The notes below the pieces were generated by a model. That model made no database searches, was not told where the DNA came from, and was given only the letters and a program-made list of their open reading frames with translations. From the IMG/VR virus record IMGVR_UViG_3300032235_000666, positions 1-36,033 of that record: 36,033 bases of DNA, one strand, 5' to 3'. A program made the translations under genes and the position numbers. Shown here one piece after another: positions 13,471 to 28,053 of this stretch; position 1 is the stretch's first letter; each line of letters begins with the position of its first letter. Origin of the DNA: a virus.

Positions 13471-13502
13471 AATTGAATGCGTTTATTTACATGTATTTAG
13501 AA

Positions 13503-13584
13503 TGCCCAAAAGAGGACTTGAACCTCCACAGATATATCTACAGGAACCTAAACCCTGCGCGTCTACCAATTCCGCCATTTGGGC
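13503..13584 (-). tRNA. tRNA-Leu (anticodon UAG)
   Basis: The 82-nt sequence folds as a tRNA. It has acceptor GCCCAAA with TTTGGGC and discriminator A, D-arm with GGTAGACGC, anticodon stem CAGGG/TCCTG with loop TTTAGGT, a long variable arm typical of leucine, and T-loop TTCAAGT. The 3' CCA is not encoded. It reads CUA-type codons, which are frequent in AT-rich phage genes. Confidence 0.95.
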
Positions 13585-13587
13585 ATT

Positions 13588-13611
13588 ATTCGCTATTTGC
13601 AAATAGCGAAT
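13588..13611. repeat. perfect 24-nt palindrome between the two tRNA genes
   Basis: The sequence is self-complementary over 24 nt, with centre ATTTGCAAAT and arms ATTCGCT/AGCGAAT. It starts at the discriminator base of tRNA-Ala and ends 3 nt before tRNA-Leu. In RNA it would form a hairpin between the two tRNAs. Confidence 0.9.
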
Positions 13612-13683
13612 GGAGAATAGCGGACTTGAACCGCTGACATCCTGCTTGCAAAGCAGGCGCTCTACCAACTGAGCTAATTCCCC
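13611..13683 (-). tRNA. tRNA-Ala (anticodon UGC)
   Basis: The 73-nt sequence has acceptor GGGGAAT/ATTCTCC, which includes the G3-U70 pair that marks alanine tRNAs, and discriminator A. The D-arm is GCTC/GAGC, the anticodon stem CCTGC/GCAGG with loop TTTGCAA, and the T-stem AGCGG/CCGCT with loop TTCAAGT. CCA is not encoded. It is transcribed first of the two tRNAs. Confidence 0.96.
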
Positions 13684-13745
13684 AGATGGATTAAGTGTGA
13701 TATGCCTCAAGGACATTCAGGGACTTAACCTCTATCATAGTATAT

Positions 13746-13775
13746 AGTATAAAACCCCCCCAACTAAAAAGTCAA
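13746..13775 (-). promoter_or_regulatory. sigma70-type promoter TTGACT-18-TATACT ahead of the tRNAs
   Basis: TTGACT (13775-13770) and TATACT (13751-13746) are separated by 18 bp, about 60 nt before tRNA-Ala. The -35 box lies inside a hairpin (13755-13781, CCCCTTGAC pairing with GTTGGGGGG through G-U pairs), followed by TTTT. That hairpin may act as a weak mazG terminator. Confidence 0.65.
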
Positions 13776-13791
13776 GGGGTTAAATCAATAA

Positions 13792-14199
13792 TTAAAGATC
13801 CCCTTCCACCCTATTTTCAGAACGATAAACATCAAAAGTTCCTTCAGGATAACGGGCACTCAACTTTTTATAATTTCTTTCCATAACATCTTCAAAAGAA
13901 ACATCAAGTGCCATACATGCTTGAGCGGCATACCAAAGAATATCACCCAATTCAATTTTAAGATGTTCGATATTTTCTTCGGTATATGGTTTACCTTGGA
14001 AAATAATCTTCTTAACAATTTCAGTGAACTCCCCAGCTTCGGCACTCATACCAACAGCAGCAGTTAATAGACGGGGAACATCACAATCTAATGTTTCAAG
14101 TTCTGTCAGACGAGATAAGAATGCTGCATAGTCGGTACTTGCAGCACTAGTAGTTTGACGTACAAAATCAATATATTTGTTTGTATCGATGGTTGCCAT
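13792..14199 (-). CDS. mazG: MazG-like nucleotide pyrophosphohydrolase
   Basis: MazG proteins split NTPs or alarmone-like nucleotides to monophosphates. Phage versions are thought to adjust nucleotide pools during infection. The 135-aa product has the signature: E54 and E57 in SAEAGEFTE, then E83 and D86 in KIELGDILWYAAQ, which gives the ExxE...ExxD metal site. The length fits the single-domain phage form. It has its own well-formed promoter at 14223-14251, which overlaps the end of the upstream dehydrogenase gene, so it can be expressed apart from the sugar cassette. Confidence 0.92.
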   Translation of the reverse strand: MATIDTNKYIDFVRQTTSAASTDYAAFLSRLTELETLDCDVPRLLTAAVGMSAEAGEFTEIVKKIIFQGKPYTEENIEHLKIELGDILWYAAQACMALDVSFEDVMERNYKKLSARYPEGTFDVYRSENRVEGDL

Positions 14200-14222: not shown

Positions 14223-14251
14223 ATTGTATCAATATAACCAGTTTTGGTCAA
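14223..14251 (-). promoter_or_regulatory. sigma70-type promoter TTGACC-17-TACAAT ahead of mazG
   Basis: TTGACC (14251-14246) and TACAAT (14228-14223) have a 17-bp spacer, and each box matches 5 of 6. The TGA stop of the dehydrogenase gene (14250-14248) lies inside the -35 box. The mazG start is 24 nt downstream. Confidence 0.72.
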
Positions 14252-15471
14252 GGATTAAATCGGGTATTGCCGTAATGAATTACGAAGACATCATCAGATT
14301 TAAATTTTCTCCAAGGGTCAACAACAATGCTTCTCTTAGGGATTTCACAATAGAGTTCATCATTACTACCATCATGCCAATAAGTTGTAGAGGCACTGTG
14401 GGCAAGAAGAAAAACTGCTGGACCATCAGGAGTATAATCATCTCCAGTGTATTTGTCAACATAGATGGGCGGTTTACCCATTTGAGTGCAGTAGTGCCCA
14501 ACTAAGATACTATAACTTCCATCAATATAAGGAACTTTTGGTTTGTATGCTTTACCATGAATAACAATAGGTAAACCACCATCAGTATTTGCAAGTTCTA
14601 CTAAACGTTCAGCAAGTTTTTTTGCTTGCATTTCACGAGATCTCATAATACCTTCAAAGAAATCGTATCCGAGTTCCAATTTTTCAGCAAGGTGACGAAG
14701 AGCAATGTTATCTCTAGGATGACAAGCACCACCATCACCCATACCAGCCTTCATGTAATGTGGACTAATGATTCTTGAAGCACCCAAACATAAGGCATTA
14801 GTAACAATATCAACATTAATATTGTGAGAATGTTCCGCAACATCTTGGATCATGTTAACAAAACTAATCTTACTGCTAATGAATGTATTATAAAAAACTT
14901 TAATACATTCACATTCATCCCAAGTTCCAACAACATATGGAGGATCATTCTCCATAATTGTCTCATAAAATTGAATTAATTGTTTAGCATCCCCAGTTTT
15001 AGTTCCGTCTTCAGTACCAATCATAACCATTTCGGGATTAACCATATCCCAAGCAACAGATCCCATTGCAATAAGATATGGATTATAAACAAAACGAGTA
15101 TTATTAACTAATTGCCAGAATTGAGTTCTAGTTGTACCAGGAAGAACTGTAGAAATAAGAACCAAAAGTTGATCCTTATTCATATATTTGTTTGCTTCAA
15201 TTAAACATTCTTTTACAATATCATAATTAAAGTCTTTTGGTTCCAAATCCATACATGGTTTACTACCATCATATTCTGGATCATGGGGAGTGGGTACAGC
15301 AATAAAAACAATTTCTCTACCTTCAACTGCTTCTTTAATAGAGTTTGTAATAGTAACTAAATTACTGCTGCGTTCTGAAACGTCATACCCACTTACAGTA
15401 TGCCCACGAAGAACAATCTCCTCTGCACATGGCATTCCAAGTTTACCTAATCCAATAAAACCAATGTTCAT
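14248..15471 (-). CDS. UDP-glucose/GDP-mannose dehydrogenase family, full length
   Basis: These enzymes oxidise a nucleotide sugar at C6 to the uronic acid with two NAD+. The 407-aa product has an N-terminal Rossmann motif (GFIGLGKLG), a central domain with K191 and N195 in KVFYNTF, the catalytic Cys C250 in GGACHPRDN, and a complete C-terminal sugar-binding domain (VIHGKAYKPKVPY). The usual CxPKD motif reads CHPRD here, with Arg for Lys. I chose ATG 15471, with AGGGAG 5 nt upstream, over the GTG at 15477. It is almost contiguous with the amidinotransferase gene, so the two are probably co-expressed. Confidence 0.9.
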   Translation of the reverse strand: MNIGFIGLGKLGMPCAEEIVLRGHTVSGYDVSERSSNLVTITNSIKEAVEGREIVFIAVPTPHDPEYDGSKPCMDLEPKDFNYDIVKECLIEANKYMNKDQLLVLISTVLPGTTRTQFWQLVNNTRFVYNPYLIAMGSVAWDMVNPEMVMIGTEDGTKTGDAKQLIQFYETIMENDPPYVVGTWDECECIKVFYNTFISSKISFVNMIQDVAEHSHNINVDIVTNALCLGASRIISPHYMKAGMGDGGACHPRDNIALRHLAEKLELGYDFFEGIMRSREMQAKKLAERLVELANTDGGLPIVIHGKAYKPKVPYIDGSYSILVGHYCTQMGKPPIYVDKYTGDDYTPDGPAVFLLAHSASTTYWHDGSNDELYCEIPKRSIVVDPWRKFKSDDVFVIHYGNTRFNP

Positions 15472-15473
15472 AA

Positions 15474-16451
15474 TCACTCCCTCTCAAGATCCAAAGTTAC
15501 ACAGTGAAAACCACCACTTAGGGTACGCTGATGCCTCATAGGAAGCATAGCACATTCTATACCAGCTTTTTCAAGAACTTTTCTGGTTGAGTGTTGATGC
15601 TCTTCAAGAGCAACTAAATTAGGATTTACACTAAACAAATTCATATTCACCCATTCTGAAGCATTATTATACCCTGGATAATATCCAATGTCTACTGGTT
15701 CTGGACACCAAATAATATCCCACCGACTAAAAGGTTCTGGAAGAACATCTCTAGATTTAATTCTACTTGGATTTGCTAAAAGTAAACCTTCACGCAAAAA
15801 TGCTACGGTAGTATCAATATGCACATAACTATAAACATTTTCCAAATAATGAACTTTGTATTGAACACTAGATCCATCATTCAATATATTAGAAATTTTT
15901 CCACCACCAGATTTATTTCCACTATTAGATACAAGATATAAAATATGTTCATTGGCACGTATTGCATTGGCAGCATCAAATGCTACTATATTTTCATTTA
16001 GTGCTAAAATGTCTGGATCACCAATACAATTTTCATTGTAAAGATCATCCATATAATTACATTTTAATTCTATAATATCATTTTTAAAATGATGTGCCAT
16101 TGATCTCCAATTATCTTTTCTAGATCTCAATGGCATAGGTGCAGAAATGACTTTATCACCATGAATAAAAATACAATCTCTAGGGCAAAAATTATAATAT
16201 TCAGTTGGTTCTTTTTTTGGTCTTAAAACCTCAACATTTTCTTTCTTTAAAAAGTCAACAAATATTTCCAAATCTTCATTTGCTTCATCTATTACTTGTT
16301 TGGGATAAGGTCCTGTTTTAATAGTATTTTCATCTTTAATATCAGCATAATTAATAGTCCGAAGACTTTTATCCAAAGGAGGAATAGTGGCATAATCAGA
16401 AACTCCCACTATAACCTTTTTCAGTTTACCCCATTCATTAGTACTATACAT
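15474..16451 (-). CDS. amidinotransferase (glycine/inosamine-phosphate amidinotransferase family)
   Basis: Family members move the amidino group of arginine to an amine, giving a guanidino product and ornithine. The 325-aa product has the expected catalytic triad: D159 in AFDAANAIRA, H211 in HIDTTVAF and C317 in GGFHCVT near the C-terminus. NFCPRD near 87-92 is also typical. The size is closer to StrB-type and bacterial enzymes than to the longer eukaryotic form. It has its own promoter (16467-16495) and is followed by a UDP-sugar dehydrogenase. The acceptor is unknown. An amino sugar made by the DegT enzymes nearby is an inference. Confidence 0.87.
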   Translation of the reverse strand: MYSTNEWGKLKKVIVGVSDYATIPPLDKSLRTINYADIKDENTIKTGPYPKQVIDEANEDLEIFVDFLKKENVEVLRPKKEPTEYYNFCPRDCIFIHGDKVISAPMPLRSRKDNWRSMAHHFKNDIIELKCNYMDDLYNENCIGDPDILALNENIVAFDAANAIRANEHILYLVSNSGNKSGGGKISNILNDGSSVQYKVHYLENVYSYVHIDTTVAFLREGLLLANPSRIKSRDVLPEPFSRWDIIWCPEPVDIGYYPGYNNASEWVNMNLFSVNPNLVALEEHQHSTRKVLEKAGIECAMLPMRHQRTLSGGFHCVTLDLERE

Positions 16452-16466
16452 CTATTAAATAATCAC

Positions 16467-16495
16467 ATTTTAAATTATTTCTACCCAATTGTCAA
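16467..16495 (-). promoter_or_regulatory. sigma70-type promoter TTGACA-17-TAAAAT ahead of the amidinotransferase
   Basis: A perfect TTGACA (16495-16490) and TAAAAT (16472-16467), 17 bp apart, lie 16 nt before the start codon. The TGA stop of the last GT25 copy (16494-16492) lies inside the -35 box. Confidence 0.7.
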
Positions 16496-17295
16496 CAATC
16501 AACTCTAATTGTCATTTTTTCATCATTCAATTTCCCATAAGTAAAGAATTCATCTAAAGTGAAATCATTTCTTTTATTGATCCACCAATAATAATAATAT
16601 TTTTTACACAAATCATGATGTTTTCTATCAATTTTTACATCATATTCAGTACTACCAAGTTCTGTATTTGTAGTAATTAAAGGTATACAATATGTTCTTC
16701 CAGTGTGCCCAATAAAATAATCTACAGTAATAGAACAATCTCTAAATGTTACATCACCAACCAATCTATCTAAACAATACTTATCACCAACAGTATGTAA
16801 TCTTAATATTTTTTCAGCATATTCTCTAGTAATTAAAATTGGACCAAAAAAACTCCCCCTAGTTTTAGGATGTAAAAAGAATGGAATGTATTCTTTGGTT
16901 TCAAATCCCAATTGAATACAATCCCAATCATAAGGAAGTCTCGACATCAAGTAGTCCCAATCAAAATGCCAATATCTTATTAAGTTCAAATCATAATCAT
17001 CTTCCATTAAAATAACATAAGGGTCATTGGTAGTGTTTAACCATGATTTCAAGGTTTCAAAATGACTTATAGCAGTTCCTACAACATACGCAGGTATATT
17101 TTTTACTTTTCCATGAATTAAATTTCCCCATTCATTGGATTTTGAAGCCAAATATTTGGAAGTAGAAACTCTTGTATAATTTGTTATACCCCAATGTAAA
17201 AACTGTTTTTCCATATATTCCCTCCTATCCAATCTATTATCCAAATTTAAGTAATAGATATGAGGTATATTTTTCAATTTATTAAATAAATCCAT
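16492..17295 (-). CDS. GT25-like glycosyltransferase, copy F
   Basis: The 267-aa product matches the GT25 layout (LPS/procollagen-type galactosyltransferases). The N-terminal motif is IPHIYYLNLDNRLDRR with WGITNYTRVS, the acidic metal site is MEDDYDL near residue 95, and YWHFDWDYLMSRLPYDWDCI follows. GPILITREYAEKILRLH comes next, and the C-terminal signature is FTLDEFFTYGKLND. The acidic motif is intact, so activity is likely. The ATG at 17295 overlaps the preceding TGA (TGATG); a GTG at 17298 is less likely. It is the last of six tandem copies. The sugar and acceptor are unknown. Confidence 0.87.
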   Translation of the reverse strand: MDLFNKLKNIPHIYYLNLDNRLDRREYMEKQFLHWGITNYTRVSTSKYLASKSNEWGNLIHGKVKNIPAYVVGTAISHFETLKSWLNTTNDPYVILMEDDYDLNLIRYWHFDWDYLMSRLPYDWDCIQLGFETKEYIPFFLHPKTRGSFFGPILITREYAEKILRLHTVGDKYCLDRLVGDVTFRDCSITVDYFIGHTGRTYCIPLITTNTELGSTEYDVKIDRKHHDLCKKYYYYWWINKRNDFTLDEFFTYGKLNDEKMTIRVDC

Positions 17296-18104
17296 CACTC
17301 AAATAACCACCAACTATAGTTTTTAATTTTTCTAATCATAGAAATATCATTTGGTTTACCATAAGTAAAAAACTCATCCAATGTAGTTTTATTAGATTGT
17401 TTCTCCCACCAATCATAGTACGCATTTCTACAAGCAGATATTAATTTATATTTTTTACTTTCCTTATTTAAAAATTTAGGATTAGAGGGTAGCAATGGTA
17501 TAGAATAAGTTTTTCCATTATGCCCTATAAAATAATCAATGGTCCCAGAGTGACCTCCCATGTTCATATTTGCAATATAATTAGACAATTTGTATTTGCC
17601 ATCAAAATGATGTAACTTTATTATTTTTTTAGCATAGTGCCTGTTAATTAAAGAAGGTCCAAAAGTGTGGCTTGGTAATATTGGGTGTAGATAAAAAGGA
17701 ATTATTGAGACATTTTCAAATCCCAATTGAATACAATCCCAATCATAAGGAATATTTTGCATTATGGTTTTCCAATCAAAAATCCAATGATTTATTATAT
17801 CAAAATCAGTTGTATCCTTTATTAAAATAAAATATGAATCATCCGTTTCATCTAACCATTTTTTAATAAATTCAAGAACCGTTACAGAATATGCAGATAC
17901 ATTATAGTTTAACTTATATAATTCTAAATCTAATACCTTTTCTACAACATTATTTTCATTATACTTGGATGCAGATATTCTCTCAAAATTTGTTATACCA
18001 AATTTTGCAAATTGATCTTCAATATATTTTTTTCTATTTAAATGTTGATCATAATTTAAATAGTATATTTTAGGTATTCCAACTAATTTTTCATGTAAGT
18101 CCAT
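17295..18104 (-). CDS. GT25-like glycosyltransferase, copy E, acidic motif degenerate
   Basis: The 269-aa product keeps the family frame: IPKIYYLNYDQHLNRK, the FDW...PYDWDCIQLGFE block, GPSLINRHYAKKIIKLHH and the tail TTLDEFFTYGKPND. The metal-binding MEDDYDL of its neighbours has become IKDTTDF, which removes the EDD triplet. It may be inactive or have a changed role, while its frame stays intact. I chose ATG 18104 because all copies begin MDL/MNL just before this point; ATG 18113 is the alternative. It lies between two copies with intact motifs. Confidence 0.83.
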   Translation of the reverse strand: MDLHEKLVGIPKIYYLNYDQHLNRKKYIEDQFAKFGITNFERISASKYNENNVVEKVLDLELYKLNYNVSAYSVTVLEFIKKWLDETDDSYFILIKDTTDFDIINHWIFDWKTIMQNIPYDWDCIQLGFENVSIIPFYLHPILPSHTFGPSLINRHYAKKIIKLHHFDGKYKLSNYIANMNMGGHSGTIDYFIGHNGKTYSIPLLPSNPKFLNKESKKYKLISACRNAYYDWWEKQSNKTTLDEFFTYGKPNDISMIRKIKNYSWWLFE

Positions 18105-18105
18105 A

Positions 18106-18993
18106 TTATTCATATTCTACTAATAATTGTTCTCTTATACTTATCATCTTATTAAAAAAATATTTAGGATCGCAGTCAACAACACTCCTTTGCATCATTC
18201 CATCATTAGATTTATTATACGTAAAAAATTCATCTAGAGTAAACTTATCACGTTCATACTTCCACCAATCATAGTAAGTATCTAAACATATTTGCATGTG
18301 TGGTCTTGGTAACCAAACATTATCCTCAAAACTACCAAAACATGGATTTAATGGAATTAATGGTAATGCATACGTTTTGCCATTTTGACACAGGAAATAA
18401 TCTCCAGTACCAGAAACACTCTTGTACCCTTTATGATTTTTCCAGACAGCGTTTCCTATATTATTATCTAACTTATATCTATCACCAATACAATGTAGTC
18501 TCAATAGTTTTTTAACATAATCTCTATTAAGCAAACATGGTCCCAAAGAATACTCATAATTTAATGGATGTAAATAAAAGGGAATTATATCTGGTGATTC
18601 AAATCCCAACATAATACAATCCCAATCATAAGGAAGTCTTGACATCAAGTAATCCCAATCAAAATGCCAGTATTTAATTATTCCTAAATCATAATCATCT
18701 TCCATCAATATTAAATATTCATCATTAGTTGTATCCAACCATTCTTTTAAAAAATCAAAATGTGTTATTGCATGTGCAACAGCATAAGAAAATGAATTCG
18801 TGGTATCTCCTATTATCAAATGTTTCCACTTCTCTTTTTCCGACACTAAAAACTTTGATGCAGAAATTCTAGTAAAGTTATCCAATCCCCAATTTTTGAA
18901 TTGGGTTTCCATATACTTTTTTCTATCCACCCTTTCATCAAGATTAACGTAGTAAATATGTGGTATATTTTTTAATTTATTTTCTATAATCAT
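18106..18993 (-). CDS. GT25-like glycosyltransferase, copy D
   Basis: The 295-aa product has an intact GT25-type layout: IPHIYYVNLDERVDRKKYME, MEDDYDLGIIKYW near residue 95, FDWDYLMSRLPYDWDCIMLG, GPCLLNRDYVKKLLRLH and the tail FTLDEFFTYNKSND. A C-terminal extension of about 35 residues follows. The start overlaps the end of copy C by 17 nt. The acidic site is complete, so this is one of the copies likely to be active. Confidence 0.87.
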   Translation of the reverse strand: MIIENKLKNIPHIYYVNLDERVDRKKYMETQFKNWGLDNFTRISASKFLVSEKEKWKHLIIGDTTNSFSYAVAHAITHFDFLKEWLDTTNDEYLILMEDDYDLGIIKYWHFDWDYLMSRLPYDWDCIMLGFESPDIIPFYLHPLNYEYSLGPCLLNRDYVKKLLRLHCIGDRYKLDNNIGNAVWKNHKGYKSVSGTGDYFLCQNGKTYALPLIPLNPCFGSFEDNVWLPRPHMQICLDTYYDWWKYERDKFTLDEFFTYNKSNDGMMQRSVVDCDPKYFFNKMISIREQLLVEYE

Positions 18994-19837
18994 ACATCTT
19001 ATATTGTGTTGGGTTATAAACCATTAGGTAATCATTGGGTTTTCCATAAGTAAAAAATTCATCTAAAGTAAATTTATCTCTTTCATGTTTCCACCAATAA
19101 TAATAGGTATTCCTTGCCATAACATCTCCACCCTGCCTGTAAATGTTATGTTGAATTCTGCTGTGATTTTCAAAACTACCAAAATCAGGGTTTGTTGTTA
19201 TTAGAGGTATAGTATAAGTTTTTCCAGGATGGCACATAAAATAATCAACTGTTCCAGAACCAGCAACATCTTCTTGCCTATTCCAAGCAGCACTACAAAC
19301 AGTGTTTATTAATTTGTACTTATCATCTACACAATGTAATCTTATTAATTTCTCTACATAATTTCTATTCAATAGACATGGACCAAAATCATGGGCAGAA
19401 TCTATAGGGTGTAAATAAAATCTAAGTCCCAAAGGATTTTCATATCCAAGTTGAATACAGTCCCAATCATAAGGAAGTCTTGACATCAAATACTCCCAAT
19501 CAAAATGCCAATATTCTATCAAACTTAAATCATAATCGTCTTCCATCAATATTAAATATTCATCATCACTACTGTCTAACCAAGTTTTCAAAAAATCTAA
19601 GTGTGTTATTGCATTTGCAGCAATAGGAACTAGAAGATTATAATTTTGATTATCAAGTATTAAATGTCTCCACTCATCTTTTTTGGATGCTAAAAATTTA
19701 GTTCCAGATATTCTAGTATAATTTGTCACACCCCATCTTTCAAATTGGGTTTCCATGTATTCTCTTCTATCTGTCCTATTATCAAGATTAAAATAATAAA
19801 TGTGAGGTATTCCTTTTAGCTTGTTATCTAAATCCAT
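18977..19837 (-). CDS. GT25-like glycosyltransferase, copy C
   Basis: The 286-aa product has an intact acidic motif (MEDDYDLSLIEYW) and FDWEYLMSRLPYDWDCIQLG. GPCLLNRNYVEKLIRLH and the tail FTLDEFFTYGKPND follow. It is closest by eye to copies D and F: the three share nearly the same motif strings, which points to recent duplication. The start overlaps copy B by 10 nt. The donor sugar cannot be read from sequence. Confidence 0.87.
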   Translation of the reverse strand: MDLDNKLKGIPHIYYFNLDNRTDRREYMETQFERWGVTNYTRISGTKFLASKKDEWRHLILDNQNYNLLVPIAANAITHLDFLKTWLDSSDDEYLILMEDDYDLSLIEYWHFDWEYLMSRLPYDWDCIQLGYENPLGLRFYLHPIDSAHDFGPCLLNRNYVEKLIRLHCVDDKYKLINTVCSAAWNRQEDVAGSGTVDYFMCHPGKTYTIPLITTNPDFGSFENHSRIQHNIYRQGGDVMARNTYYYWWKHERDKFTLDEFFTYGKPNDYLMVYNPTQYKMYDYRK

Positions 19838-20673
19838 AATATTTTTTGCTCATCTGACATAAATTTTATATTTAACGCTTCACCATGTACCTTATTTTGA
19901 TAATCATCATCCAAAAAAATTTTCATTTTAGAATCATTTGATTTACAATAATGAAATTTATCAAAAATAGTAAATAACTTTGATTTTGTTCTCCACCAAT
20001 TTTCTGTAGTAATAGAAGAAATCTTTTCATCATTATCTTCATAATTACCCCAAGTATTAAAAATAGGGAACATATAACATACACCTAATTCAAATAGAAA
20101 AAAATTTATATTCCCATAATAGTATTCTTGCACACCATAATTATTACTATTAATGTGTAATTTATATTTGCCCTCATAAAAATGTAATTTTTTTATTTTT
20201 TTGGCGAATTGTCTAGTTACCATAAAACATTTTGATTTATATATTTCATCTTCTTTTGGTTTAAGATGCATAGAAATAGTATCAGATTTAATAACATTTA
20301 ACTGTATACAATCCCAGTTATACGGTAAGCATGTCATTAAAAAATTCCAATCAAAAGACCAATATTCGGCCAAGTCAATATTTACATTATCGTCCATAAA
20401 AATACAGTATTGATCGTCACAATTGTCATACCAATCAATAATAGTTTTTAAATATATTAAATTGTATTGCAACTGGTTATCATCTAAAGATAGATTTTTA
20501 TCTAAAATTAATTTTTTATAGTTTTTAAGTTCATAAGAAATTCTCTCATAGTTAGTTATCTCCCACTTAGAAAAATTATCTTCCATAATTTTTCTATTAG
20601 AATTATTTTGATCAAGATTAAAATAATATATTTTAGGAAGTCCTGTAAGTTTATTTTTATGTTCTATATTCAT
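19828..20673 (-). CDS. GT25-like glycosyltransferase, copy B, strongly diverged
   Basis: The 281-aa product is the least like the others. It retains LPKIYYFNLDQNNSNRK, WEITNYERIS, a DWNFLMTCLPYNWDCIQL block and a worn C-terminal signature (FTIFDKFHYCKSND). The acidic motif reads MDDNVNIDL instead of MEDDYDL, and the usual arginine-rich N-terminal motif is altered. It has a longer tail after the signature. It may act on another substrate or be losing function. It overlaps copies A and C by 4 and 10 nt, so it is still held in the operon. Confidence 0.8.
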   Translation of the reverse strand: MNIEHKNKLTGLPKIYYFNLDQNNSNRKIMEDNFSKWEITNYERISYELKNYKKLILDKNLSLDDNQLQYNLIYLKTIIDWYDNCDDQYCIFMDDNVNIDLAEYWSFDWNFLMTCLPYNWDCIQLNVIKSDTISMHLKPKEDEIYKSKCFMVTRQFAKKIKKLHFYEGKYKLHINSNNYGVQEYYYGNINFFLFELGVCYMFPIFNTWGNYEDNDEKISSITTENWWRTKSKLFTIFDKFHYCKSNDSKMKIFLDDDYQNKVHGEALNIKFMSDEQKILWI

Positions 20674-21545
20674 AATGTTATATAAGTGTTATTGAAAGAT
20701 GGTATTGTTATTGTCATTTTGTAATCAGTAGATTTATTATAATTGAAAAAATCTTCTGCAGTAAATTGTTGACTTTCATTCATCCACCACTTTCTAATAT
20801 AGTAACTAGAAAATATATCATTCATTTTGTTATGATGCATTTTTATAGTATCATCATACTCCTGACCTGGAAATAAACTTGGTTTATTATCTGGATTTTG
20901 TGATAGGTGTTGATTTAATGAGAATAATGGTAATGTATAATTAATACCAACTTGATATATTAAAAAGTCATCACTACTGTAACAAGGTTTTTCTACTCTA
21001 CAATCTCTCAAACTATTATCAAGTTTAAACCCACCATCAGGTCTTAAATGCATTTTAATTAGTTTTTCAGCATACCATCTATTAATCATATAACATGCAC
21101 CTGAGCAGCAATTATGAAGTCTTTTTTTAAGGTGCATTGGAATATATGCATAATGACAGAAATATAAAAGAATACAATCCCAATTATAAGGTAGATTTTT
21201 CATTAAATAGTCCCAATCAAACATCCAATATTCGATTAGTTCTAAAGATAAATCATCTTGCATAATGATACAATATTCTGAAATTCCAGAATTGTACCAA
21301 TCGATTATTGTTGTAAATTGGTTCATTACAATTGAAGCATCTGAAGGAGTTAATAACATTAAATCTAACTTATCCTTCCATTCATCAATTTTATCAATAG
21401 AATATCGAGAAGCAGAAACTCTAGTATAGTCTGTTATTCCCCATTTTTTAAATTGGTTCTCCATATTAGTTTTTCTATCAATTCTATGGTCCAAATTTTG
21501 ATAGAATATTGGAGGTAAATTTTTTAATTTATTGTCTAAATTCAT
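20670..21545 (-). CDS. GT25-like glycosyltransferase, copy A
   Basis: The 291-aa product is the first transcribed of the six. It has LPPIFYQNLDHRIDRK, WGITDYTRVSASRY, an acidic motif MQDDLSLELIEYW near residue 95 (QDD for EDD), FDWDYLMKNLPYNWDCILL, and a tail FTAEDFFNYNKSTD. An insert before the tail makes it longer than copies C and F. The aspartates of the motif are kept, so activity is plausible. It overlaps the short DegT gene by 4 nt (ATGA). Confidence 0.83.
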   Translation of the reverse strand: MNLDNKLKNLPPIFYQNLDHRIDRKTNMENQFKKWGITDYTRVSASRYSIDKIDEWKDKLDLMLLTPSDASIVMNQFTTIIDWYNSGISEYCIIMQDDLSLELIEYWMFDWDYLMKNLPYNWDCILLYFCHYAYIPMHLKKRLHNCCSGACYMINRWYAEKLIKMHLRPDGGFKLDNSLRDCRVEKPCYSSDDFLIYQVGINYTLPLFSLNQHLSQNPDNKPSLFPGQEYDDTIKMHHNKMNDIFSSYYIRKWWMNESQQFTAEDFFNYNKSTDYKMTITIPSFNNTYITL

Positions 21546-22141
21546 TTTTTAAAAACCTCCATATCAGGTAAATATGGGTAATTCAAGTATCCATATCGTT
21601 TAGGTTGTTTATAAGCAACCTCTTTAAATTTTTCAATACCAGACATCGCAATTTCTGGTGTCATATAATAATGATATCCAACCATACTTATATTTTGTTC
21701 TCCCCATGGTTTATCTGATGTTCTTCCATCATAGACCATTTTTTTAATAGTATCATGTGCATCTTTATTATCCAATAAAATTATTCCACCCCTACCCAAA
21801 CTTAAATGTTTTCTAAATTGAAAACTTATACACATGTAAGTTTCAGGAATATAACTATTTTTTTCCCATAAAAAAGCAGCATCTATTATATTAGTGTTTC
21901 CAAGATAGTAATAATCACGCCATTGATAATTTTTTTTCCAATCCCATTTCAACCCAAGTTTCTCAGCAGTAAATGGAATTGAAATATAAGTATGCTCTGG
22001 AATAAGAATGTTATCATATTGCTCATATCTTAAGCACAATTCAATTGCATGTGTGCAACAATCAGTTGCCACAGCATACGGAGAATTAAAAAATTTTGCT
22101 ATTAATTTTTCAAAATCGTCGATAACAGAAAAACTATTCAT
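21542..22141 (-). CDS. half-length DegT/DnrJ/EryC1/StrS aminotransferase-like protein
   Basis: Full family members are near 380 aa and use PLP to aminate keto sugars. This one has 199 aa but keeps recognisable landmarks in order: SPYAVATDCCTHAIELCLR, IIDAAFLW (D87) and FQFRKHLSLGRGGIILL with K111 at the PLP lysine position. The C-terminal domain and part of the large domain are missing. The frame is clean, with 4-nt overlaps on both sides, so it is not a recent frameshift wreck. It could be a compact form, a binding partner of the full-length enzyme at 24967-26106, or inactive. Confidence 0.75.
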   Translation of the reverse strand: MNSFSVIDDFEKLIAKFFNSPYAVATDCCTHAIELCLRYEQYDNILIPEHTYISIPFTAEKLGLKWDWKKNYQWRDYYYLGNTNIIDAAFLWEKNSYIPETYMCISFQFRKHLSLGRGGIILLDNKDAHDTIKKMVYDGRTSDKPWGEQNISMVGYHYYMTPEIAMSGIEKFKEVAYKQPKRYGYLNYPYLPDMEVFKK

Positions 22142-22782
22142 ATTGATTTACCATAAAGAATGAAATCTTTTTCATATAATTTGTAAAAATAATTTAAATT
22201 AATTTTAACATACTTTTCAAATATTTTTTCACAAGTAAGTTTTGTGATTAAATTACTTTCTCTCTCAACATTCAAAGTTATTTTATTGGAATATAATATT
22301 AATTTGTTTATTTTATCTTCCAATCCACTATCCATTTTTAAGTATGTGTTGGTTAGTTTGGTTATGCATGGATCTATAGATAAATGCTGTGGTGCAGTAT
22401 GAAGATCAAATATATATTTTTTATTTTTAACTTGTTCAACAATATAGTCAATAGATCCATCAAATCTATTCATAAATTCACCAATACCAGAAATCCATCT
22501 TTTTACAGGATCCCGTATTACACAAAAAGATCTATATTTTTTAGTGCATAATAATAAATTGATATCATCTTCACTGAAATTAATCATATCAATAAACGCA
22601 GATTTTTGTAATGCTGACGATATTGATGTACTAGCACATTTATCTATATGCAAATATATCAGTTTTTCTTTTGCACTTATGTAAGATCCATTAAATTTTT
22701 GTTTATTTTCAGTATTTAAATTTCTATATTTAAATGTGAAAGAAGAACAATAGTTAGAATATTCATTTATAACATTATCCAT
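22138..22782 (-). CDS. sulfotransferase-like protein
   Basis: Sulfotransferases move sulfate from PAPS to a hydroxyl or amine, often on a sugar. The 214-aa product has a 5'-phosphosulfate loop in YLHIDKCASTSISSAL (K48, near residues 45-53) and a 3'-phosphate site in FCVIRDPVKRWISG (R90 with Ser98). Both resemble the Sulfotransfer_2-type carbohydrate enzymes. The ATG at 22782 overlaps the oxygenase stop by 8 nt; a TTG at 22788 is less likely. It sits in the sugar cassette, so the acceptor is probably a glycan. This is by context. Confidence 0.78.
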   Translation of the reverse strand: MDNVINEYSNYCSSFTFKYRNLNTENKQKFNGSYISAKEKLIYLHIDKCASTSISSALQKSAFIDMINFSEDDINLLLCTKKYRSFCVIRDPVKRWISGIGEFMNRFDGSIDYIVEQVKNKKYIFDLHTAPQHLSIDPCITKLTNTYLKMDSGLEDKINKLILYSNKITLNVERESNLITKLTCEKIFEKYVKINLNYFYKLYEKDFILYGKSI

Positions 22783-23296
22783 TATCAATTCTTGCAGTTA
22801 CCTGTAAAGTATATCTATTTTCTCTACCTATATTAGCAGCAATATGAGGTGCTTCCCCAATCCACATACAACAATCACCTTTTTTCCAATTAGTTATGGG
22901 ATTATCATCAACTTCAAAATAATGCCCAGATTTCCAATCATCCAAGAATACAAGAATTCTACACAACTCATTAGGATCATCTACATTTAATATTTTTTTA
23001 TATACTGGATAGGTATCTTTATGCTCTGGCATTATAGTTCCAGGAGACATGCAATATAAGCACAGTTTAGCATCTGATATTTTAAACTTTTCAATGACAT
23101 CTTGTAGAACATCATAACACCATGCGGGAAGACCTTTATATTCTTCAATCAAAAATCCAGTATAGTTTACATACAAGTGTCCAATTTCTTTCCAAGTGTT
23201 GACAGTATTATCATCTGGAAATTGCCTTCTAGGAGAATAATTTAAATTTTTAAATTCACCTATCAAATCTGGGTTAATTCTTTTAAAGTAATGCAT
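22775..23296 (-). CDS. 2OG-Fe(II) oxygenase-like (Asp/Asn hydroxylase type)
   Basis: The 173-aa product has a double-stranded beta-helix motif set: H92 and D94 in PEHKDTYP, H151 in EAPHIAANIG and R161 in ENRYTLQVT. These fit an HxD...H iron site and a 2-oxoglutarate arginine as in aspartyl/asparaginyl hydroxylase-like proteins. The central block is RILVFLDDWKSGHYFEVDD. I chose ATG 23296, inside the end of the epimerase gene (14-nt overlap), over the GTG at 23314. The substrate may be a sugar, a protein or a small molecule. Confidence 0.78.
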   Translation of the reverse strand: MHYFKRINPDLIGEFKNLNYSPRRQFPDDNTVNTWKEIGHLYVNYTGFLIEEYKGLPAWCYDVLQDVIEKFKISDAKLCLYCMSPGTIMPEHKDTYPVYKKILNVDDPNELCRILVFLDDWKSGHYFEVDDNPITNWKKGDCCMWIGEAPHIAANIGRENRYTLQVTARIDNG

Positions 23297-24206
23297 CGTT
23301 TTTATACCACTCACACGTTTTCTTCAATCCTTCATCAATAGAAGTAAACTTTGTTATATTAGTTATATCAGTTAATAAATCAATATTTGGACATCTCCTA
23401 TTGACCGATCCTTCTTTAGATTTCAAAATATTAATCTGAGGATCGTATTCAAATATAGAAAATATTTTATATATCAAATCTTTTATTACAATCTCATCAG
23501 CAACACCGAGATTGATAATTCTACCATCACTAAGAGAACTATTCATAATAAGATCCAACATGGTTACAGCATCATCAATATAACAAAATGATCTAGTTTG
23601 ATCCGCACCATATATTTTAAATGGAGTTTCTTTTAAAAGAACTCTTTTAATAACTTCTGGAATTACATGATTATATCCCATTCGTGGACCATAAACATTA
23701 TGTGGTCTAACTATAGAAAAATTAATACCAGAATTTATAAACAACAATTCACCAAATATTTTACTTCCAGCATAAGACCATCTAGGATTATATACATCAT
23801 CAATAGAAACTACCACATCTTCTTTTGTTGGTATTTCCTTTTCTTTAGTTGAAGCATATACTTCAGATGAAGAGGTATACAATACCTTTTTCACTTTCGT
23901 TTTTTTACACCATTTTATAAGATTTATATTAATTAACGTATTAACTTCCAATACCTCATAGGGAATTTCATAGAAATTACTAGTACCATTTATTGCAGCA
24001 AAATGATAAACATAATCATAATTATCTAATTTATCATAATCTTTTTCTTTTGTTAGATCACACTCAATATAATTAAGATCTTCGACAAAATTATCATTCT
24101 TACCTCTAAAATTATTATCACAAATAGTGACATCATTATTTTTGCACAGGTAATTTGCTAAGTGTGATCCTATAAATCCAGTACCACCAGTTATAAGTAT
24201 TTTCAT
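23283..24206 (-). CDS. NAD-dependent sugar epimerase/dehydratase (extended SDR)
   Basis: Extended SDR enzymes act on nucleotide sugars as epimerases, dehydratases or decarboxylases. The 307-aa product has the Rossmann motif GGTGFIGSH (7-15), YHFAAINGT, the active-site TSSSEVY (111-117) and YAGSK with Y145 and K149. RPHNVYGPR and YGADQTRSFCYIDDA complete the family pattern. The length is normal. It overlaps the dehydrogenase gene by 4 nt upstream and the oxygenase gene downstream. The exact reaction is not decided by these motifs. Confidence 0.9.
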   Translation of the reverse strand: MKILITGGTGFIGSHLANYLCKNNDVTICDNNFRGKNDNFVEDLNYIECDLTKEKDYDKLDNYDYVYHFAAINGTSNFYEIPYEVLEVNTLININLIKWCKKTKVKKVLYTSSSEVYASTKEKEIPTKEDVVVSIDDVYNPRWSYAGSKIFGELLFINSGINFSIVRPHNVYGPRMGYNHVIPEVIKRVLLKETPFKIYGADQTRSFCYIDDAVTMLDLIMNSSLSDGRIINLGVADEIVIKDLIYKIFSIFEYDPQINILKSKEGSVNRRCPNIDLLTDITNITKFTSIDEGLKKTCEWYKNDALL

Positions 24207-24970
24207 AAGAATTTTTTATTGTCAGTAATAATTGCATCAAAAAATTTAATATCGATATTATTTTTTTTACAATAATTACTCATTGCAAGAGTATCTTTTG
24301 GTAAACAAGATCCAGAAAATCCCCTAAGATTTTTATTACAATTCAGATATAAATCTGATATGAACTCTCTTTTTGCAAGGGCAGTTTTAATATCATCATA
24401 ATTCACACCAAAATTTTCACATATTTCATAAAAAACATTGGATAAAGTAATCATAGTGGCATTATGAATATTATGGAAATATTTTAAAATTTCACTCTGA
24501 GTTGGATTTAACATAATAAAATTTTTGGGATAAAATCCATGAGTTTTCTTAACAATATCAAACACATCTTCATCTAGAGTTCCAACTACACATATATCAT
24601 GATTGTCCATGAAATCAGATATTGAGCACCTCTCTCTAAGAAACTCTGGAACATGACATATTCTCATCAAATCATATTGCTCTATCAATTTTTGAGTTGT
24701 CCCTGGTTCAACTGTGGATTTTATAGCAACCACACCACGATAATGTAATGAATTAAGTTCACTTACAACATCAAGTACAATAGAAGTGTCACACTCACCT
24801 TCCAATGTACTTGGAGTGGGGACACAAATATAACATATATCAGTTACTAAGACATCTTTAATACTTGTTTGTAATACAATATCATGGGGAACTACTTCAT
24901 ATCCCAATCGAGTAAAACAATATTCTAATGTTTTACCTACAACACCCAACCCAACAATACCAATTTTCAT
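24203..24970 (-). CDS. short UDP-glucose/GDP-mannose dehydrogenase family protein
   Basis: The 255-aa product has GIVGLGVVG, VPTPSTLEGECD, KSTVEPGTT, CHVPEFLRERC, K163 in ILKYFHNIHN and the catalytic Cys C222 with K225 in GFSGSCLPKDT. These are all the N-terminal and central-domain residues. It ends about 30 residues later, so the C-terminal sugar-nucleotide domain found in full-length members (about 400 aa) is missing. The frame is clean, with 4-nt overlaps on both sides. It may be a compact enzyme, work as an oligomer with another subunit, or have a different substrate. Confidence 0.85.
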   Translation of the reverse strand: MKIGIVGLGVVGKTLEYCFTRLGYEVVPHDIVLQTSIKDVLVTDICYICVPTPSTLEGECDTSIVLDVVSELNSLHYRGVVAIKSTVEPGTTQKLIEQYDLMRICHVPEFLRERCSISDFMDNHDICVVGTLDEDVFDIVKKTHGFYPKNFIMLNPTQSEILKYFHNIHNATMITLSNVFYEICENFGVNYDDIKTALAKREFISDLYLNCNKNLRGFSGSCLPKDTLAMSNYCKKNNIDIKFFDAIITDNKKFL

Positions 24971-26106
24971 AATTTTTCATACCTAGATACGATATCAATA
25001 ACCTTATCTACATCAGAATTAGTCATTTCATAATGACAAGGTATCATTATATGATGATCTTCAGCATATTGAACATTCATTAAACTAGCATCAAGTCCAC
25101 CAAAAATTGGATATTGATCCAATCTTCTATTATTCATATGAACGTGAATGTTATTTTCCCACATCATTTCAGCAAATTTTTTCCGATCTTCAACAAATAC
25201 TGGAAATATCTGATAATTGGGAATATTGAAATTATGGTATTTTACCATATTAACTTTCTCAAAATTACTAAATGCATCTCTATATTTTTCACCAATATAT
25301 CTTCTACGTTCTAAACATATGTCCAAATATTCCAATGCAATATTTGCCATAGATGCAGTAATATCATTCATATTTAATTTGAATCCCAAAGTGTCTGGCA
25401 TATAATCGAAAAATGGATCTACATTCGGACTTCCATCTCTTGCTTCTCTATCTATACCAAACCAAATAGATTTTTTCAATTTACTATAATATTCTTCATT
25501 ACTAGTAGTAACAAATCCACCATCACCACAAGTAATTATTTTTACTGTTTGAAGAGAAAACGTACATAATTCACCAGATCCAATTTTTTGATCTTTATAG
25601 TAAGATCCCATAGCATGGCAACAATCTTCAATCAATGGTAGATTATATCTTCCACAAACATCACGCAACTCATCCAAATCTACTGGATTACCAGCAAAAT
25701 GAACACAAACTACAGCTTTAGTTCTATTTGTTATTTTTTGTTCTACACTTTTTGGATCAATATTTAAAGTATCTCTTTGAATATCTGCAAATACTGGTTT
25801 TGCTCCCATCTCAAGTATAGCAGTATTAGTAGCAATAAAAGTCCAGGGAGTGGTAATTACCTCATCCCCAGACTTTATTCCAATAGCAGAATACGCAGAT
25901 TTTAATGACCCCGTTCCACTGGTAGTTGCAATAGAATATCTTGCATTAAAAATATTACATATTTTCTCTCTTAATTGTCTCTCTCGTTTTCCAGTATTAA
26001 TCCATCCAGATTGAAGAACTTCCGATACATCCCTATCTAAATCTTTAGGGATAAATGCACCAGAACATCTAATTTCTTTTCCTATATTTCCGTCGTATTT
26101 AAACAT
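24967..26106 (-). CDS. DegT/DnrJ/EryC1/StrS sugar aminotransferase, full length
   Basis: This PLP enzyme adds an amino group to a keto sugar on a nucleotide carrier, or acts as the related dehydratase. The 379-aa product has TTSGTGSLKSA, PWTFIATN, VFADIQRDTLNID, EDCCHAMGSYY (D161), and SLQTVKIITCGDGG with K189 as the PLP lysine. Length and motif order are those of an intact member. It overlaps the upstream oxygenase (8 nt) and the downstream dehydrogenase (4 nt). With the short dehydrogenase and epimerase it would supply amino or oxidised sugars. Confidence 0.91.
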   Translation of the reverse strand: MFKYDGNIGKEIRCSGAFIPKDLDRDVSEVLQSGWINTGKRERQLREKICNIFNARYSIATTSGTGSLKSAYSAIGIKSGDEVITTPWTFIATNTAILEMGAKPVFADIQRDTLNIDPKSVEQKITNRTKAVVCVHFAGNPVDLDELRDVCGRYNLPLIEDCCHAMGSYYKDQKIGSGELCTFSLQTVKIITCGDGGFVTTSNEEYYSKLKKSIWFGIDREARDGSPNVDPFFDYMPDTLGFKLNMNDITASMANIALEYLDICLERRRYIGEKYRDAFSNFEKVNMVKYHNFNIPNYQIFPVFVEDRKKFAEMMWENNIHVHMNNRRLDQYPIFGGLDASLMNVQYAEDHHIMIPCHYEMTNSDVDKVIDIVSRYEKL

Positions 26107-26671
26107 GATTTTTATTAATTAAATCGAATACGTGATCTTCTTGTATTGTAAACCACATTGCAATAGTATATCTAGGGTTTAATTTAACTTCAGTAACACC
26201 ATGTTCAATATGTGATGGAAAGAATACAACTTTTCCTTTTTCGGGTATACATGCTTTATCTTCATTTGGAAAAAATGTATATCCACCATCATACCCATCA
26301 TTCAAGTAACATATAGAACTGTAGTATCTGAAAGATAAATTTGCAGTATCTGGATTAGTACCTCTACTGTAATCATAGTTATCAACATGGGAATCCATAC
26401 TCATTCCTGGAGCCCAGTATACAATATCAATAAATTCACTGAATATAAACTTTTCATCATAAAAAAGTTTAGATGCAGTTTGAACCATTTTTTGTTCAAA
26501 TGCTCTAAATTTTTGTATTAGTGAAGTGTCTCTTATTTCGCGTGGAGTTAAAGTTCTTCCATGGAAATCTTGATGTTTTTGCCACAAACTTCTTTGCCCA
26601 CTGTCATTAAAATATTTTATGACTTCATCACAAAATTCAGGCGATAAAAAATTAGGTATTTCGTAAATCAT
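26099..26671 (-). CDS. 2OG-Fe(II) oxygenase (prolyl-4-hydroxylase type)
   Basis: The 190-aa product shows the prolyl hydroxylase-like pattern: H95 and D97 in DSHVDNYD, the ICYLNDGYDGGYTFFP block, H157 in IEHGVTEV, and R167 in NPRYTIAMWFT for 2-oxoglutarate. The length fits small phage and bacterial members. It lies between the gp41 helicase and the aminotransferase, at the head of the sugar cassette. Targets of these enzymes in phages are not established. Confidence 0.87.
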   Translation of the reverse strand: MIYEIPNFLSPEFCDEVIKYFNDSGQRSLWQKHQDFHGRTLTPREIRDTSLIQKFRAFEQKMVQTASKLFYDEKFIFSEFIDIVYWAPGMSMDSHVDNYDYSRGTNPDTANLSFRYYSSICYLNDGYDGGYTFFPNEDKACIPEKGKVVFFPSHIEHGVTEVKLNPRYTIAMWFTIQEDHVFDLINKNHV

Positions 26672-26676
26672 AGTTA

Positions 26677-28053
26677 TTAAAATTTAAATGCATTAAATTT
26701 ATCTTTTGAATTTTTCTTTTCATCATATTCATATTCATCATTACCAGAATCGATTATTTCATCTTGTGCTTTTTGTTCACAATCATACAATCTCATTTTA
26801 GCACGATCAATACCAATAACAAACCTTTTATAAATTGTAGGATCATTATATCGGTTCTTCAATTGCTTTACCATAATCTGACCCAACTGTTCCAACTCTT
26901 CTGTGCTAATAAGGGCAAACATAAGATCAGCAGTAGCAGGGAGACCAAAGGATTCAGAAGTATCAGTAAGTTCAACATCAGAGTTGCCATAACCACTCCT
27001 AGTGGTCTGGGTAGCAGAGACAATGGGAACATTGAATTCCACCGCCAATCCACGTAACTCTTCTGCAATTGACTTAATGTACGAATAAGAATTGACAGAG
27101 CTATTTGCCTTATGCCTAGAGGAAGCACAAATATTAAGGTAATCAATGAAAATAATATCAGGTCTAAATGACTTCTTAAGTGCAAGTTCATTAAGAAGTG
27201 CTTTAAAATGTCCACTATGAGCAGATGCAGTGGGATACTCTTTAATTATAAGAGTTCCTTGAGTTTTGTTTGAAATTGCTGTTACCTTATTTTCAAACAT
27301 AGACTTAGGCAATTCTGCTAATTGTTGGATTGGGACATTGAAAAGATTTGCATCAATTCTCTCTGCAATTCGCTCTTCCGCCATTTCAAGAGTGATGTAG
27401 AGAACGTTCCTACCTTGCAATAAGATGGAACTAGCCACATGACACATGAATAACGATTTCCCAACACCTGTGCCAGCGAGAGCGATATTGAGAGTTTTAT
27501 TAGGGAGACCACCTTTCGTAATTTTGTTGAAATATTCCAAGTCAAACTCGATCTTATCTTCTTTGCGGTGGTAAAATTCATATCTTTCTTCATAATTTTC
27601 TAAGTAATCGTGTCCAACATTATTATCAAAACTTACTGCAAGAGCATCAGACAAAATACTAGGAATAGCATCACGATTTTTCTTAGTATCATTACCATCA
27701 GCAATGTAAATAGATTCCATCAATGCCAAATAAATGGCACGGTCCCTACACCACTTTTCAGTAGTATCAAGCAACCATTGTTGATCTGATGGTTGATATT
27801 CAAAACAACTAATAATTTGATTTAACTCTTTAATTTGTGTTTCATTAATATCTGTTCTATTAGAAATTTCAATCAATAATACCTCTACAGTAATTTGGGT
27901 ATTATAGTTTAGAATAAACTTAACAGTTTCTTCAAAAATAATTTTCTGACAATCATCCACAAAATAGTCAGGTTGGATAAAAGGAATTACCTTTCTTGAG
28001 TATTCTTCATTAAAAACGAGATTTTTTAAAACTGTAAGTTCAACACTGTCCAT
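26677..28053 (-). CDS. 41: replicative DNA helicase, T4 gp41 (DnaB-like)
   Basis: The hexameric helicase unwinds DNA at the phage fork and binds the gp61 primase. The 458-aa product has a helical N-terminal domain and a RecA-type C-terminal domain. Walker A is GTGVGKS (194-200), Walker B is IIFIDYLNIC near 300, and SATQTTRSGYG is in the DNA-loop region. The tail is acidic and Lys-rich. The start shares one base region with the oxygenase stop (28053). It sits downstream of uvsX as in other marine T4-like phages. Confidence 0.94.
   Translation of the reverse strand: MDSVELTVLKNLVFNEEYSRKVIPFIQPDYFVDDCQKIIFEETVKFILNYNTQITVEVLLIEISNRTDINETQIKELNQIISCFEYQPSDQQWLLDTTEKWCRDRAIYLALMESIYIADGNDTKKNRDAIPSILSDALAVSFDNNVGHDYLENYEERYEFYHRKEDKIEFDLEYFNKITKGGLPNKTLNIALAGTGVGKSLFMCHVASSILLQGRNVLYITLEMAEERIAERIDANLFNVPIQQLAELPKSMFENKVTAISNKTQGTLIIKEYPTASAHSGHFKALLNELALKKSFRPDIIFIDYLNICASSRHKANSSVNSYSYIKSIAEELRGLAVEFNVPIVSATQTTRSGYGNSDVELTDTSESFGLPATADLMFALISTEELEQLGQIMVKQLKNRYNDPTIYKRFVIGIDRAKMRLYDCEQKAQDEIIDSGNDEYEYDEKKNSKDKFNAFKF

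What the first reader, a model, noticed from the sequence alone, without database searches (positions are those of the whole stretch)
14248..26671. Twelve-kilobase phage cassette for a complex modified sugar or glycan
Between gp41 and mazG lie two DegT-type aminotransferase-like genes, two UDP-sugar dehydrogenases, an epimerase, a sulfotransferase, two oxygenases, six glycosyltransferases and an amidinotransferase. Together they could make and attach an aminated, oxidised, sulfated or guanidinylated sugar. I know of no described phage pathway with this set. Possible targets are the host O-antigen (receptor masking), virion proteins or phage DNA bases.
Basis: inference. Interest (0 to 1): 0.85.

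Follow-up and report, generated by a model that had tools for sequence, protein, structure and literature searches.

The report
Cyanophage guanidino-sugar glycan gene cassette
A virus of ocean cyanobacteria carries a 12-kilobase block of genes that probably builds an unusual nitrogen-rich sugar and attaches it to a protein or surface; the same block recurs in dozens of related viruses and includes a half-size version of a well-known sugar enzyme that no protein family library clearly describes.

Summary
In cyanophages Bellamy and S-SM2 the same site holds only one small gene.

The cassette is not a random pile. Its core is a miniature DegT aminotransferase (sDegT, 199 aa), a StrB1-like amidinotransferase (AMID), a PF05118 oxygenase (AspHyd) and GT25 glycosyltransferases. 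Of 80 viral loci fetched with AMID, 75 also hold sDegT and 72 AspHyd, at two different genomic sites. The full DegT, short sugar dehydrogenase and epimerase are rare extras.

sDegT folds confidently like sugar aminotransferases and keeps the PLP lysine. In marine bacteria its gene often precedes a GDP-mannose 4,6-dehydratase gene. All cassette genes are under purifying selection, including two GT25 paralogues that lost the EDD motif. One close relative has a replaced, divergent interior between conserved flanks.

Best reading: an operon making a guanidinylated 4-amino-6-deoxyhexose glycan (inferred). Virion protein is slightly favoured over host surface as target; DNA is unlikely.

Sugar clusters in cyanophages are known (P-SSM2, S-SSM7), so this is a new variant of a known kind.

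The parts
26099..26671 (-). 2OGa: 2OG-Fe(II) oxygenase (PF13640), first cassette gene, 5 bases after gp41
24967..26106 (-). DegT: full-length sugar aminotransferase (PF01041; best NCBIfam PseC/ArnB-like but below cut-offs); accessory, among AMID loci only in L003-L005
24203..24970 (-). UGDH2: short nucleotide-sugar dehydrogenase family protein (255 aa, no C-terminal domain match); accessory
23283..24206 (-). EPI: NAD-dependent sugar epimerase/dehydratase; accessory
22775..23314 (-). AspHyd: PF05118-type 2OG oxygenase, H98-x-D100 / H157 / R167 invariant in 29 sequences; core gene (72 of 80 loci)
22138..22788 (-). SULF: Sulfotransfer_2 family; 32 of 80 loci; among the least conserved cassette proteins
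21542..22141 (-). sDegT: 199-aa minimal DegT-type aminotransferase, PLP lysine K111 invariant; core gene (75 of 80 loci)
20670..21545 (-). GTf: GT25-like, motif QDD
19828..20673 (-). GTe: GT25-like paralogue that lost the third acidic residue of EDD; conserved pseudo-glycosyltransferase candidate
18977..19837 (-). GTd: GT25-like, EDD intact
18106..18993 (-). GTc: GT25-like, EDD intact; present in 16 of 80 loci
17295..18113 (-). GTb: GT25-like paralogue with EDD replaced by KDT; conserved pseudo-glycosyltransferase candidate
16492..17298 (-). GTa: GT25-like, EDD intact; AF2 model nearest mimivirus R655 and human COLGALT1
15474..16451 (-). AMID: StrB1/AGAT-type amidinotransferase; D159, H211, C317 invariant in 23 sequences; core gene
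14248..15477 (-). UGDH1: nucleotide-sugar dehydrogenase (phrog_9148); linked in 39 of 80 AMID loci
13756..13779 (-). intrinsic-terminator-like hairpin just after mazG, possible end of the uvsX-to-mazG transcription unit (consensus match only)
13792..14199 (-). mazG: conserved flank, not part of the cassette
26677..28053 (-). gp41 DnaB-like helicase: conserved flank, not part of the cassette

Best explanation
The cassette is a glycan-making and attaching operon inserted into the replication gene block of a T4-like cyanophage. A miniature DegT aminotransferase puts an amine on a nucleotide-bound 4-keto-6-deoxyhexose, most likely GDP-4-keto-6-deoxymannose supplied by a dehydratase encoded elsewhere in the phage or by the host. 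A StrB1-type amidinotransferase turns that amine into a guanidino group, with arginine as donor. A PF05118 2OG oxygenase, a sulfotransferase and a nucleotide-sugar dehydrogenase tailor the sugars further. Several soluble GT25 enzymes, helped by two related proteins that lost the catalytic motif, assemble a short chain on an acceptor. The acceptor is more likely a hydroxylated virion protein of the tail-fibre type than host lipopolysaccharide. Shown: the gene set, its linkage and conservation, retained active-site residues, predicted folds, and replacement of the interior in one close relative. Inferred: substrates, order of reactions, acceptor.
For: Linkage: among 80 viral loci fetched with AMID, sDegT is present in 75, AspHyd in 72, GTd in 70, at two kinds of site, gp41-mazG in 36 and elsewhere in 44. 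Isolate S-SCSM2R has GT-GT25-GT-sDegT-radical SAM-GT-AspHyd-AMID. AMID: StrB1 2.3e-76 ahead of human AGAT 4e-44; D159/H211/C317 invariant. sDegT: AF2 mean pLDDT 93.9; Foldseek best is GDP-perosamine synthase 1.9e-10, and VIA-align rows are Z 17 to 19 over 185 to 197 of 199 residues, nearly all sugar or cyclitol aminotransferases; K111 and D87 invariant. A GDP-mannose 4,6-dehydratase-like gene lies directly downstream in 27 of 53 sDegT loci without AMID, and three larger records of gp41-mazG-type phages carry a dehydratase above cut-off elsewhere. GTs: AF2 pLDDT 93.7; nearest folds are mimivirus R655 (Z 16.5) and collagen hydroxylysine galactosyltransferase COLGALT1 (Z 15.8). Purifying selection on all genes. 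In 30 of the 44 other loci a tail-fibre-like protein lies a few genes upstream. No cassette protein has a predicted membrane segment.
Against: No substrate was tested. Not one AMID-bearing locus of the sDegT set has the dehydratase directly downstream of sDegT, so the sDegT substrate could differ there. The tail-fibre neighbourhood is absent at the gp41-mazG site and in S-SCSM2R, and a relative keeps the tail-fibre/oxygenase block without the cassette beside it, so the neighbourhood may be coincidence. GT25 enzymes also act on LPS. No glycan of any cyanophage carrying this set is described in the papers searched.
Confidence: 0.55

Rival explanations
1. The same sugar pathway acts on the host: the phage enzymes rebuild the lipopolysaccharide or another surface glycan of the infected cyanobacterium, so that competing phages or grazers no longer recognise it.
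For: Sugar clusters of other cyanophages are read this way in the literature (PMC2984593; PMC9602691). The cassette sits in a block with replication genes, which suggests early or middle expression (inference from T4-like phages). In a close relative the interior is replaced between conserved flanks, as in O-antigen loci.
Against: No flippase, polymerase, lipid-carrier initiating transferase or membrane protein in the cassette. GT25 folds nearest to protein hydroxylysine glycosyltransferases.
Confidence: 0.35
2. The enzymes make a free small molecule such as a guanidino-cyclitol or aminoglycoside-like compound, in the manner of streptomycin biosynthesis.
For: AMID is closest to StrB1 of streptomycin biosynthesis and DegT enzymes such as BtrR appear among the fold matches of sDegT. 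Some relatives add carbamoyltransferases and radical SAM enzymes.
Against: Several linked glycosyltransferases with conserved positions, no exporter or resistance gene seen, and a lytic phage gains little from a secreted product.
Confidence: 0.04
3. The cassette decorates phage DNA bases with a sugar to evade host nucleases.
For: Phages with glycosylated bases exist (established knowledge), and a weak Tet_JBP match occurs for 2OGa.
Against: Thymidylate synthase/dCMP hydroxymethylase family absent in nine large relative records (with 9 of 14 controls positive); Tet_JBP below cut-off. The GT fold is GT25, nearest to protein glycosyltransferases.
Confidence: 0.03
4. The genes are functionless cargo picked up to fill the head, as was suggested for cyanophage LPS clusters.
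For: The stuffer DNA idea is raised in PMC3037559.
Against: Strong purifying selection on every gene and conserved order across many phages.
Confidence: 0.02

Closest known systems
LPS/sugar gene clusters of T4-like cyanophages (P-SSM2, S-SSM7, S-SM2, S-SCSM1)
   Same: Large glycosyltransferase and nucleotide-sugar clusters in Kyanoviridae-type phages; GT25 of this family occurs in P-SSM2 and S-SM2.
   Different: Those lie near hli03 or phoH (PMC3037559). In the phage collection only S-SCSM2R has a close AMID (68%) together with sDegT. The position between gp41 and mazG and the six GT25 genes were not seen in the isolates examined.
Streptomycin amidinotransferase StrB1 and human AGAT
   Same: Whole-length sequence match and conserved catalytic Asp-His-Cys.
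   Different: Acceptor unknown; partner enzymes and glycosyltransferases differ.
GDP-perosamine synthase and other DegT/DnrJ/EryC1/StrS sugar aminotransferases
   Same: Fold and PLP lysine motif.
   Different: sDegT is about 200 aa against 360 to 440, has a GYHYYMTPE signature, and gets only weak matches from Pfam, NCBIfam and PHROGs.
GT25 collagen galactosyltransferases (COLGALT1) and mimivirus R655
   Same: Nearest solved folds of GTa.
   Different: About 20% identity; acceptor not known; no collagen-like protein found in the window or the AMID loci.
Radical SAM array with amidinotransferase in Campylobacter phages CP220/CPt10
   Same: An AMID homologue (about 25% identity) beside two GT-A-like genes.
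   Different: No sDegT or AspHyd match in that stretch; dominated by radical SAM enzymes.

Membership tests
AGAT/StrB1 amidinotransferase | Catalytic Asp-His-Cys of the family | tested here: met
   Profile match over the whole length to 1bwd and human AGAT; D159, H211, C317 invariant
AGAT/StrB1 amidinotransferase | Arginine as amidino donor, amino sugar or cyclitol as acceptor | not testable with these tools
   Needs an enzyme assay
DegT/DnrJ/EryC1/StrS aminotransferase (sDegT) | PLP lysine and fold-type-I large domain | tested here: met
   K111 and D87 invariant; VIA-align Z 17-19
DegT/DnrJ/EryC1/StrS aminotransferase (sDegT) | Full length with complete C-terminal small domain | tested here: not met
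   199 aa in the window, median 202 in 75 relatives
GT25 glycosyltransferase | GT-A fold of the COLGALT/R655 type | tested here: met
   (GTa modelled; others by sequence alignment)
GT25 glycosyltransferase | EDD motif in every copy | tested here: not met
   GTa, GTc, GTd EDD; GTf QDD; GTb KDT/RDT and GTe changed third position, conserved in relatives
Cyanophage LPS cluster as in P-SSM2/S-SSM7 | Position near hli03 or phoH next to tRNAs | tested here: not met
   Here between gp41 and mazG; mazG is followed by tRNA-Ala and tRNA-Leu
DNA base hypermodification system | ThyA-family base hydroxymethylase or Tet/JBP oxygenase | tested here: not met
   No PF00303 hit and no PF12851 hit above cut-off in nine relative records, most of them fragments; the window's own genome is incomplete
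T4-like cyanophage (Kyanoviridae type) | gp43-uvsX-gp41-mazG order | tested here: met
   Same order as Bellamy and S-SM2

The most novel reading that the evidence does not exclude
Cyanophages carry an exchangeable serotype-like locus: a conserved set of enzymes, including a minimal half-size aminotransferase, that hydroxylates and then glycosylates their own tail fibres with a guanidinylated deoxyhexose, the interior being swapped between phages by recombination in the conserved gp41 and UGDH1/mazG flanks.
Probability: 0.2. Interest if true: 0.8.

Novelty: new variant of a known kind. Interest (0 to 1): 0.55.

Why it matters
Sugar gene clusters in cyanophages have been known for about twenty years without a demonstrated product or target in the papers read here. 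This cassette narrows the question to a conserved core found in one isolate with a cultured host (S-SCSM2R on Synechococcus WH7803), with a predicted product mass, so the target can be tested directly.

Tried and rejected
DNA modification was tested with PF00303 and PF12851 in nine relative records: no support. Collagen-like acceptors: a G-X-Y scan found none in the window or AMID loci, only in L105 and L135, which have sDegT but no AMID. Late-promoter-like CTAAATA motif: 4 matches against 12.5 expected by chance, uninformative. Sigma-70 scan: no excess over shuffles. Profile search of AspHyd in the PDB: only chance-level matches. Literature: no paper found joining amidinotransferase, phage genome, aminotransferase and glycosyltransferase; the one paper with amidinotransferase, cyanophage and glycosyltransferase (PMC11360552) gave nothing about this cassette in the passages read. 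The ORF at 13483-13716 was dismissed because it overlaps two tRNA genes. Linkage counts are per contig and include near-identical contigs; AMID sequences form 23 groups at 85% identity. The five AMID loci without sDegT were not examined one by one; some end close to AMID.
Full report
What is there. The window is an entire 36,033-base virus record, a fragment of a T4-like cyanophage. Reading along the minus strand the order is gp43, a 180-aa protein, uvsX, a 2OG oxygenase, gp41, then the cassette, then mazG and two tRNA genes. In the cyanophages Bellamy and S-SM2 the same order is found with only one small hypothetical gene between gp41 and mazG. The window therefore carries a 12.4-kb insertion in an otherwise conserved replication block. 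Nearly all cassette genes overlap or abut. A terminator-like hairpin follows mazG, but no terminator or promoter excess stands out against shuffles, so co-transcription is an inference. G+C falls to 26-31% across most of the cassette against about 30-39% in the flanks.

Gene by gene. Families were assigned by Pfam, PHROGs and NCBIfam. Four corrections matter. The DegT-like gene at 21542-22141 (sDegT) encodes only 199 aa. The dehydrogenase at 24203-24970 is a 255-aa short form of the nucleotide-sugar dehydrogenase family. Two of the six GT25 paralogues (GTb, GTe) lost the EDD motif, in relatives too, while GTa, GTc and GTd keep EDD and GTf has QDD. The amidinotransferase (AMID) is weak in Pfam, but its family profile matches StrB1, the inosamine-phosphate amidinotransferase of streptomycin synthesis, at 2.3e-76, ahead of human AGAT at about 4e-44, with D159, H211 and C317 invariant in 23 sequences.

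The conserved core. A viral-contig search with AMID gave 186 related stretches, of which 80 loci were kept. In these, sDegT occurs in 75, the PF05118 oxygenase AspHyd in 72, GTd in 70, UGDH1 in 39 and SULF in 32. Thirty-six loci have the gp41 and/or mazG flank (class a); 44 have neither (class b). The full DegT occurs only in L003-L005; matches to the short dehydrogenase and the epimerase are also few. Counts are per contig and some contigs are near-identical; AMID forms 23 groups at 85% identity. The isolate S-SCSM2R, on Synechococcus WH7803, has the core in the order 2OG, GT, GT25, GT, sDegT, radical SAM, GT, AspHyd, AMID, GT2.

sDegT. AlphaFold2 with 26 aligned sequences gave a mean pLDDT of 93.9. 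Foldseek's best hit is GDP-perosamine synthase (1.9e-10). VIA-align gives Z of 17 to 19 over 185 to 197 of the 199 residues, the rows being DegT-type sugar, cyclitol or related PLP enzymes of about 360 to 440 aa. The PLP lysine K111, the aspartate D87 and the glycines of the lysine motif are invariant, as is the GYHYYMTPE signature. In several of these the order is a ~140-aa cupin-like protein, a ~180-aa protein, sDegT, and a GDP-mannose 4,6-dehydratase-like protein. Over all 90 sDegT loci counted, the dehydratase is directly downstream in 27, all of them among the 53 loci without AMID. That points to GDP-4-keto-6-deoxymannose as substrate of the wider family. For the AMID-linked branch it is only an inference, although three class-a relatives carry such a dehydratase elsewhere in their records, two of them checked and lying beside an epimerase-family gene that resembles GDP-fucose synthase.

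Glycosyltransferases. GTa modelled with 42 aligned sequences gave pLDDT 93.7. The nearest solved folds are mimivirus R655 (Z 16.5) and human collagen galactosyltransferase COLGALT1 (Z 15.8), ahead of bacterial beta-1,4-galactosyltransferases (Z 14.2). R655 was once annotated as an LPS enzyme and is now regarded as a putative collagen glycosyltransferase (PMC9546862), so an LPS label alone is a weak guide to acceptor. A tree of 132 GT sequences recovers GTa, GTb, GTc, GTd and GTe of class-a phages as separate clades (GTe with support 0.86, the others 0.99 or more), while GTf is not recovered alone because its clade includes GTe. The tandem array therefore predates the divergence of these phages, and the motif-less GTb and GTe have been kept.

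Selection and exchange. Pairwise dN/dS is between 0.02 and 0.44 for all cassette genes compared, including GTb and GTe, so none looks like a decaying passenger. Against relative L010 the flanks uvsX, gp41, UGDH1 and mazG have synonymous divergence of 0.43 to 0.48, while the interior genes lie between 0.72 and 1.85, with protein identities of 38 to 74% against 93 to 98% in the flanks. The simplest reading is replacement of the interior by recombination in the flanks, as in bacterial O-antigen loci. Other pairs show a milder contrast.

Target. Three observations lean towards virion protein. First, in 30 class-b loci a 175-aa protein family lies a few genes upstream of the GTs; its S-SCSM1 relative is annotated as a tail fibre and virion protein, and that study identified virion proteins by mass spectrometry (PMC9602691). 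Second, between the two sits a protein with a C-terminal 2OG oxygenase domain and an N-terminal part that looks like a second one by motif. Third, no cassette protein has a predicted membrane segment and no lipid-carrier initiating transferase, flippase or polymerase was found. Against this, a 246-kb class-a relative keeps the tail-fibre/oxygenase block with the GT cassette elsewhere, and S-SCSM2R has them apart too, so the neighbourhood could be chance. Host-surface modification, the usual reading of cyanophage sugar clusters, remains nearly as likely. Phage DNA is unlikely: nine relative records have no PF00303 match, and one Tet_JBP match falls below cut-off. Most of those records are fragments, which limits the force of this.

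Verdict. Large sugar clusters in cyanophages are known, so the kind is not new. New here are the conserved AMID-sDegT-AspHyd-GT25 core, its recurrence at two kinds of genomic site, the half-size aminotransferase family and the retained motif-less GT25 paralogues. No passage found in the papers searched describes this set; the library holds open-licence papers only. Structures, substrates and target need experiments.

Noticed in passing
L105, L135:10839-12799: sDegT followed by a GDP-mannose dehydratase-sized gene and then collagen-like G-X-Y proteins in viral contigs without AMID.
   Followed up: no
L190:7234-10985: Block of paired tail-fibre-like proteins, two small proteins and a 388-aa 2OG oxygenase in a 246-kb relative, without the GT cassette beside it.
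   Followed up: partly
L191:8786-18141 and L192:4743-15569: A second glycan cluster in class-a phages: radical SAM, GDP-mannose dehydratase, an epimerase-family protein resembling GDP-fucose synthase, transferase-like genes and a single GT25.
   Followed up: partly
L037:9521-11038 and 23 other class-b loci: Nol-like carbamoyltransferase usually two genes after AMID, suggesting a further O- or N-carbamoyl decoration.
   Followed up: no
L085 (Campylobacter phage CP220): Amidinotransferase homologue within an array of radical SAM genes and two GT-A-like genes of unknown purpose.
   Followed up: no
L194 (642-kb uncultured phage LR756502): A huge phage carries sDegT and a UGDH1 relative within 5 kb of each other.
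   Followed up: partly
L193:5986-6630 (Flavobacterium phage immuto): Short 214-aa DegT in an isolated non-cyanobacterial phage, between mannosyltransferase and pilin glycosylation-like genes.
   Followed up: no
window 13483-13716: ORF that spans the tRNA-Leu and tRNA-Ala genes and is probably not a real gene.
   Followed up: yes
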